Shown one piece after another: positions 10,762-11,897 of a stretch of DNA of 33,433 nucleotides. The stretch's first letter is position 1; each line of letters opens with the position of its first letter. The DNA comes from Candidatus Bathyarchaeia archaeon (GTDB lineage Archaea > Thermoproteota > Bathyarchaeia > Bathyarchaeales > Bathycorpusculaceae). The stretch lies in the NCBI GenBank assembly GCA_030019335.1, contig JASEET010000011.1, positions 1 through 33,433 of the forward strand. The letters run 5' to 3'. A model generated the notes under the pieces. That model had not been told where the DNA came from. It saw only the letters and a list, made by a program, of their open reading frames with translations, and ran no database searches. Position numbers and translations under genes: made by a program.

Positions 10762-10878
10762 GCTTTGACCTCCTTATGATAGACAGGTAGGTAGAAAGGA
10801 AAATAACGATATAAGCGTGCTTATTTGTGGAAGAAATAAATAGTTAGAAATCTGTCTTCAATTATTGGAGAGAACTGC

Positions 10879-11877
10879 ATGACAAAAAACATATTCTTTG
10901 TTGTACATGATGAAGAATCTTACGAGAAGCATCCAGATTTAATAGGTTTCTACGTTAAAACTGATTTAGACGGCAAACCTATGAGAAATGCGAGGGGCGA
11001 ACTAATCCCCGAACACCCAACTGTTAACGAAATTAGACCAAAAGATAGAGTGATCTGCTATACACGAGGGGATTATCTTATAAGAGGCATATTTGAGGTC
11101 ACTGAAAAATTAAAAGAGGGAGATGCTCGTAGGGCTAAGGATTGGACGCGTGGACTCGTTCAGTTTGTGATCGAACTAATCTTGAAGCCAAGAGGCGATG
11201 TTGACTTTAGAAATATAATTTTCTCTGGAAAAGATAGTCTTGAAATGTTTGGGCACCTAGATAATTTGAAGAAACAATGGGGAATGTCAATAGGCGGAAG
11301 AAATTATATAAGAAAAATTAGTTTGCATGATTTTGAAATTATAGAAAAGGCTTTACGCCATACCTTAAAACTTGAAGCCAAAGAAGAAGAGGGGGAGATG
11401 CCTAAGTTCCCACGAGTGCATCTTGCAACTCAATTTAAACTTGTAAAAATATTGAAAAGTTACAGGCTCAAGGTTCATGTGGCGAGAAACAATAAAGTAA
11501 AGATGTCAGAGAAAGGTGAGGATGTTCTTGAAAGTATTCCCGAGTTTCATAATGAGCACATTTGTGACATTGCTTCAAGAATTGATTGCGTTGCTTTTTC
11601 AGAGAGCAACGTGCCGAGAATTTTGATTGAAGTAGTTGATACTCCGGCAACTCTAACAGAATCCCTCTACAGACTGAATGAAGTCGCTCTAGTGTATCCC
11701 AGGTCAGAGGAACAGAGATTCTACATAGTTGGTCCCGAAATCTTAAGAAATAACTTCAATGAAAAAATTGAGTCTCTAACCTTCAAGTCTCTAAAAGACG
11801 TAAATTGTATGTTCAAACCATATCAAGAAGTTAACGAACTTTTCATGGAATCTCAAAAGAAAAAACCAAAGCTTTGA
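10879..11877 (+). CDS. EVE/PUA-like domain fused to PD-(D/E)XK nuclease-like domain
   Basis: A 332-residue two-part protein. Residues 1-160 look like an EVE/PUA-type reader: IRPKDRVICYTRGDYLIRGIFEVTE, then a strand and loop region and KISLHDFEIIEKAL, the usual 'GD-x-V-x-x-Y-x-x-G-(x)n-GIFEV' layout. Residues 180-310 fit a restriction-endonuclease-like fold: a helix followed by YRLKVHVARNN, IDCVAF (D236), RILIEVVDT (E251), a YRLNEV helix and FYIVGPE. The lysine of the ExK motif is not obvious (E251-V-V), so activity is uncertain. EVE domains read modified bases, so a role in restricting modified DNA is an inference. GGAGAG precedes ATG 10879, and tgtA starts about 20 bases after the stop. Confidence 0.6.
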   Translation: MTKNIFFVVHDEESYEKHPDLIGFYVKTDLDGKPMRNARGELIPEHPTVNEIRPKDRVICYTRGDYLIRGIFEVTEKLKEGDARRAKDWTRGLVQFVIELILKPRGDVDFRNIIFSGKDSLEMFGHLDNLKKQWGMSIGGRNYIRKISLHDFEIIEKALRHTLKLEAKEEEGEMPKFPRVHLATQFKLVKILKSYRLKVHVARNNKVKMSEKGEDVLESIPEFHNEHICDIASRIDCVAFSESNVPRILIEVVDTPATLTESLYRLNEVALVYPRSEEQRFYIVGPEILRNNFNEKIESLTFKSLKDVNCMFKPYQEVNELFMESQKKKPKL

Positions 11878-11897
11878 TCGTTTAATTGGGCTTAATG

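What the first reader, a model, noticed from the sequence alone, without database searches (positions are those of the whole stretch)
10879..11877. EVE-like reader fused to a restriction-nuclease-like domain next to tgtA
The N-terminal 160 residues look like an EVE/PUA-type base reader, and the C-terminal part has a PD-(D/E)XK-like core (VHVARNN, D236, E251) with an unusual E-V-V in place of E-x-K. Such a plan is known for enzymes that cut modified DNA. It lies about 20 bases upstream of an archaeosine TGT, an enzyme that handles 7-deazaguanine bases, which also occur as DNA modifications in some viruses. It may be a stand-alone type IV-like restriction factor.
Basis: partly seen in the sequence, partly recalled or inferred. 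Interest (0 to 1): 0.62.

Follow-up and report, generated by a model that had tools for sequence, protein, structure and literature searches.

The report
Archaeal modified-base reader fused to nuclease
This archaeal gene joins a domain that recognises chemically modified DNA or RNA bases to a restriction-nuclease-like domain, so it is probably a stand-alone defence enzyme of an already described type, and its position beside a tRNA-modification gene looks accidental.

Summary
The ORF is real (10879-11877, 332 aa) and so are both claimed folds. Profiles built without the window protein score aa 4-162 as an EVE domain at 63 bits (best of 1000 shuffles 9) and aa 180-327 as a restriction-endonuclease-like domain at 56 bits (best shuffle 6). 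Structure prediction plus Foldseek points to EVE/YTH/VcaM4I and, more weakly, to EcoT38I/XPF. D236 and E251 are conserved in all 24 aligned relatives. The next catalytic position (V253) is usually Glu (FEVE) and elsewhere Gln or His; one relative shares the Val. The window's active site is therefore unusual and may be weakened. The same EVE+nuclease order recurs in other archaea and in IMG/VR contigs, and published work already lists EVE-PD-(D/E)XK fusions as putative type IV restriction enzymes. The tgtA link is not supported: tgtA is in 85 of 91 family genomes, the fusion protein only in this one, and relatives carry nothing or unrelated genes between PAC2 and tgtA. No dpdA match was found in the genome. 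Verdict: a divergent, probably acquired EVE-nuclease fusion of a known kind, most likely cutting foreign DNA with modified bases. Substrate and activity are untested.

The parts
10879..11877 (+). Two-domain gene: EVE-like reader (N) + PD-(D/E)XK-like nuclease domain (C), 332 aa
10879..11373 (+). EVE/PUA-like N-terminal domain, aa ~1-165 (profile match aa 4-162)
   Evidence: profile without the window 63.1 bits vs 9.2 best shuffle; A3 profile to PDB 1wmm UPF0310 PH1033 E=3.2e-11 and 2p5d E=5.5e-9; Foldseek 2gbs (EVE), 6yex (VcaM4I), YTH domains
11407..11859 (+). Restriction-endonuclease-like C-terminal domain, aa ~177-327
   Evidence: profile without the window 55.7 bits vs 5.8 best shuffle; AF2 of the domain pLDDT 84, pTM 0.80; Foldseek best EcoT38I prob 0.99, E 8.5e-3, then XPF, FANCM-FAAP24, MUS81, Cap4
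11419..11433 (+). H181 and Q185 of the first helix; H in most relatives (S in three), Q or E at the second position
11584..11586 (+). D236, invariant Asp of the nuclease core
   Evidence: D in all 24 aligned relatives
11629..11640 (+). E251-V252-V253-D254; E251 invariant, V253 in place of the usual E (FEVE); V also in L033
11886..13523 (+). tgtA (archaeosine tRNA-guanine transglycosylase), ordinary downstream neighbour, not part of the system
   Evidence: TIGR00432, 570.6 bits
10009..10761 (-). PAC2-family gene, the other edge of the insertion spot
   Evidence: PF09754, E 6e-41

Best explanation
The gene encodes a stand-alone, modification-dependent (type IV-like) nuclease. The EVE domain is thought to bind DNA and flip a modified base into its pocket (inferred from VcaM4I). 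This places or licenses the C-terminal PD-(D/E)XK-like domain, which would cut nearby DNA, probably as a dimer and with metal held by D236 and E251 (inferred). Because the target itself carries the mark, no partner methyltransferase is needed. Shown here by computation: ORF, two domains, order, conserved D and E, recurrence of the architecture, presence in one of 91 family genomes at a variable site. Inferred: DNA as target, base flipping, cleavage, antiviral role.
For: Both domains are recognised by profiles that exclude the window. AF2 gives both folds, and Foldseek links the N-half to EVE/YTH and to VcaM4I, an EVE-HNH restriction enzyme, and the C-half to EcoT38I and XPF-type nucleases. D and E are invariant in 24 relatives. 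The same N-EVE/C-nuclease order occurs in L032 and in L078-L080 with intact FEVE, and related EVE+nuclease fusions in L017, L023, L036 and L037. Close EVE relatives sit in defence settings: L071 between hsdR and mrr, L021 fused to a GmrSD-like (DUF262) protein and L019 to a PLD-like nuclease (by reading). The gene is sporadic and sits where relatives carry other genes. Bell et al. 2020 describe EVE-PD(D/E)XK fusions as putative type IV enzymes. VcaM4I shows EVE base flipping for 5mC/5hmC.
Against: Position 253 is Val where most relatives have Glu, and the conserved NDR motif reads NNK, so the active site may be impaired. Foldseek E-values for the nuclease fold are only 8.5e-3 at best. No nearby defence gene or methyltransferase was seen in the ORFs listed for the 33-kb contig. 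The modified base is unknown. The archaeal UPF0310-type EVE proteins with solved structures have no proven ligand known to me.
Confidence: 0.6

Rival explanations
1. A reader with a dead or non-cleaving nuclease fold. The EVE domain binds a modified base and the degenerate C-domain only binds DNA or dimerises, so the protein acts as a decoy, regulator or partner of another nuclease.
For: E-V-V instead of E-V-E and NNK instead of NDR; Foldseek also returns the FANCM-FAAP24 complex, a non-cleaving use of this fold (that it is non-cleaving is from general knowledge).
Against: D236, E251, H181, Q185 and R265 are all kept; the E-V-V motif recurs in L033 with a D/E core; the third position also varies to Q and H in relatives, so it may not be essential.
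Confidence: 0.2
2. An RNA-directed factor: the EVE domain reads modified RNA (for instance modified tRNA) and the nuclease domain cuts it in an abortive-infection response.
For: EVE/YTH domains also bind RNA; Foldseek hits include many YTH-RNA complexes; other EVE-like relatives are fused to membrane segments (L016, L020, by reading), as in cell-death effectors.
Against: The C-domain resembles DNA nucleases (EcoT38I, XPF), and its family members are mostly annotated as restriction enzymes or hypothetical proteins on plasmids.
Confidence: 0.1
3. A partner of tgtA in archaeosine or 7-deazaguanine metabolism, for example a nuclease that checks 7-deazaguanine in DNA.
For: Adjacency in the same direction with a gap of about 10-20 bases.
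Against: tgtA in 85/91 family genomes, this gene in 1/91; the closest tgtA relative (L040, 82%) has a short unrelated ORF there, and others have an MFS transporter, an exported protein or nothing; no dpdA match in the genome; TgtA has the same length in relatives, so it is not missing a domain supplied by this gene.
Confidence: 0.04
4. An ordinary type II-like enzyme that cuts an unmodified site, with a methyltransferase elsewhere in the genome giving protection.
For: The C-domain family is annotated 'type II restriction endonuclease'; the genome has N4/N6 methyltransferase-like genes; L078 lies beside a large protein with an NPPYG motif that reads like a DNA methyltransferase.
Against: No methyltransferase next to the window gene; an EVE reader suggests dependence on modification.
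Confidence: 0.06

Closest known systems
EVE-PD(D/E)XK putative type IV restriction proteins (Bell, Wolf and Koonin 2020, PMC7641849)
   Same: Same domain combination; EVE with pronounced sequence divergence; putative modification-dependent restriction
   Different: The text read here gives no sequence that could be compared with this protein; the window protein has E-V-V at the active site and no neighbouring defence genes
VcaM4I, EVE-HNH endonuclease (PMC7897488; PDB 6yex)
   Same: N-terminal EVE reader, helical linker, C-terminal nuclease, similar size (309 vs 332 aa); second best Foldseek hit
   Different: Catalytic domain is HNH, not PD-(D/E)XK-like
UPF0310 proteins PH1033 (1wmm) and MJECL36 (2p5d)
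   Same: EVE domain of the archaeal type, profile E 3e-11 and 5e-9
   Different: Stand-alone, no nuclease domain
PADLOC REase_II family PDLC03534 / solitary plasmid 'type II restriction endonucleases' (e.g. Deinococcus L004, L005)
   Same: Homologous C-terminal domain with H..Q, ID and FE core
   Different: Different N-terminal region; FEVE instead of IEVV; the window itself matches the model only at E 0.0011
EcoT38I (PDB 7edb)
   Same: Best structural match of the C-domain, prob 0.99
   Different: 11% identity; whole-enzyme architecture differs

Membership tests
EVE domain (PUA superfamily) | Sequence similarity to known EVE/UPF0310 proteins | tested here: met
   63.1 bits with a profile that excludes the window; profile to PDB 1wmm E 3.2e-11
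EVE domain (PUA superfamily) | PUA-like beta-barrel fold | tested here: met
   AF2 model; Foldseek top hit 2gbs (EVE protein) prob 1.0, E 1.4e-3, then VcaM4I and YTH domains; parts of the N-domain have pLDDT 50-65
EVE domain (PUA superfamily) | Base-binding pocket with bound modified base | not testable with these tools
   W89 is invariant among the window and its three closest relatives but was not superposed on the VcaM4I pocket
PD-(D/E)XK nuclease | Core alpha-beta-beta-alpha-beta fold | tested here: met
   AF2 C-domain pTM 0.80; best Foldseek hits are PD-(D/E)XK-fold proteins, E 8.5e-3; moderate strength
PD-(D/E)XK nuclease | Conserved Asp and Glu of the active site | tested here: met
   D236 and E251 invariant in 24 aligned relatives
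PD-(D/E)XK nuclease | Third catalytic residue (K, or E/Q in variants) | tested here: not met
   V253; V also in L033, otherwise E, Q or H
Type IV (modification-dependent) restriction enzyme | Reader fused to nuclease without a partner methyltransferase | tested here: met
   Domain architecture; no methyltransferase among the ORFs read in the 33-kb contig
Type IV (modification-dependent) restriction enzyme | Cuts modified but not unmodified DNA | not testable with these tools
   needs biochemistry
tgtA / 7-deazaguanine associated system (Dpd-like) | Conserved linkage to tgtA or presence of dpdA | tested here: not met
   1/91 vs 85/91 genomes; no dpdA match

The most novel reading that the evidence does not exclude
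A modification-dependent nuclease that works with a hydrophobic residue (E-x-V, possibly helped by D254 or R265) in place of the third catalytic residue, found in at least two archaeal lineages (window and L033), with a reader for a base modification used by viruses of Bathyarchaeia that nobody has identified.
Probability: 0.15. Interest if true: 0.5.

Novelty: new member of a known kind. Interest (0 to 1): 0.27.

Why it matters
It adds a divergent archaeal example to the EVE-nuclease restriction proteins and shows that the third catalytic position of this nuclease family varies (E, Q, H, V) while D and E stay fixed. If active, it would imply that viruses of these uncultured archaea carry modified bases. 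The tgtA neighbourhood, which looked like a clue to the substrate, should not be used as one.

Tried and rejected
Pfam, NCBIfam and PHROGs gave nothing for the protein. phmmer against PDB gave nothing, and a C-domain profile against PDB gave nothing. A peptide-pattern scan of genome contigs with the single protein found no relative, likewise viral contigs with A3, L003, L032 and a DNA pattern for FEVExTTSxYSG. The EVE-PUA-supply idea (this gene provides a PUA domain missing from TgtA) was rejected because TgtA has the same length in relatives that lack this gene. The 7-deazaguanine DNA idea was dropped. A literature search for EcoT38I returned only irrelevant papers.

Full report
What is there. 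The window is contig C2 of an assembled genome of 1.64 Mb in 73 contigs. Two relatives in the same class (G179 and G216) correspond to named Bathyarchaeota records, so the genome belongs to that class of archaea (inference). ORF 10879-11877 (+) encodes 332 aa and is followed by tgtA after about 10-20 bases. Upstream and on the other strand lies a PAC2-family gene.

N-terminal domain. In the genomes searched, N-terminal relatives are a 270-aa protein (L006/L069), a 157-aa protein (L010/L070) and a 220-aa protein (L011/L072), at 27-29% identity. A profile of these and the window finds the archaeal EVE structures PH1033 (1wmm, E 3.2e-11) and MJECL36 (2p5d, E 5.5e-9). A wider profile that includes stand-alone archaeal EVE proteins finds them at E 6e-37. 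With a profile that excludes the window, the window protein scores 63.1 bits over aa 4-162; the best of 1000 shuffles scores 9.2. Foldseek with the AF2 model gives an EVE protein (2gbs), VcaM4I (6yex) and YTH domains.

C-terminal domain. Relatives were found in the same family (L002, L003), the same class (L007-L009), the phylum (L032-L038), on Deinococcus and many other plasmids (L004, L005, L073-L077) and on IMG/VR contigs (L078-L083). A profile that excludes the window gives it 55.7 bits over aa 180-327 against 5.8 for the best shuffle. AF2 of this part alone has pLDDT 84 and pTM 0.80. Foldseek ranks EcoT38I first (prob 0.99, E 8.5e-3), followed among others by XPF, FANCM-FAAP24, MUS81-EME1 and Cap4; Rab-type GTPases also appear at similar or weaker E-values, so the structural support is moderate.

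Active site. Across 24 aligned relatives D236 and E251 are invariant. The position two after E251 is E in most (FEVE), Q in L036 and L038, H in L037, and V in L033 and in the window. H181, Q185 and R265 are kept; the conserved NDR reads NNK.

Architecture elsewhere. N-EVE/C-nuclease proteins also occur in L032, L078, L079 and L080 with the FEVE motif, and in L017, L023, L036 and L037 with related cores. The EVE match is weak for some of these (L036: 10 bits). L033 has a matching nuclease domain, but its N-half was not recognised by the EVE profile (0.5 bits). The window's closest EVE relatives carry a different short C-domain (L006, L011, L071); the L071 copy lies between an hsdR-like and an mrr-like gene (identified by reading). 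Bell et al. 2020 describe EVE-PD(D/E)XK fusions as putative type IV restriction enzymes and propose base flipping; VcaM4I shows this for EVE-HNH.

Relation to tgtA. tgtA is found in 85 of 91 genomes of the family. The fusion protein, searched by sequence in 151 genomes (relatives) and 257 genomes (class), had no full-length match outside its own genome; matches elsewhere were to one domain or part of the protein. In relatives PAC2 and tgtA face away from each other with either nothing or unrelated genes between: a short ORF in L040 and L053, MFS-like transporters in L047, L059 and L068, a nuclease-like ORF in L046 (identities by reading). The GC content dips to 0.37-0.38 across the gene against about 0.40-0.45 around it. 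I read this as an insertion-prone site. No dpdA match was found.

Mechanism. Most likely the EVE domain captures a modified base and the nuclease domain cuts nearby DNA. Domains and conservation are shown by computation; substrate, cleavage and defence role are inferred. The main doubt is whether E-V-V still supports catalysis.

Noticed in passing
window 10762-11885; L040, L046, L047, L053, L059, L068: The gap between PAC2 and tgtA is a variable spot: short ORFs, MFS-like transporters or a nuclease-like ORF occur there in relatives; L046 also has a 35-residue tgtA 5' fragment.
   Followed up: partly
L069 5001-5813; L072 4992-5654; L071 5001-5816: EVE domains fused to a different short C-domain with the pattern FE..S..F..H....CD.(I/V)VCWE, possibly another nuclease type; one copy lies between hsdR-like and mrr-like genes.
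   Followed up: no
L002 1426-2547; L003 964-2028; L014 765-1830: EVE-like N-region plus FEVE nuclease domain; L002 and L003 lie next to a DUF488-like gene; the L014 copy is split into two ORFs (DUF488 by reading).
   Followed up: no
L004, L005, L073-L077: Solitary proteins with the FEVE nuclease domain are widespread on bacterial plasmids (176 records), several beside metal-resistance genes.
   Followed up: no
L016, L020: EVE-like N-domains fused to segments that read like membrane helices, suggesting cell-death effectors.
   Followed up: no
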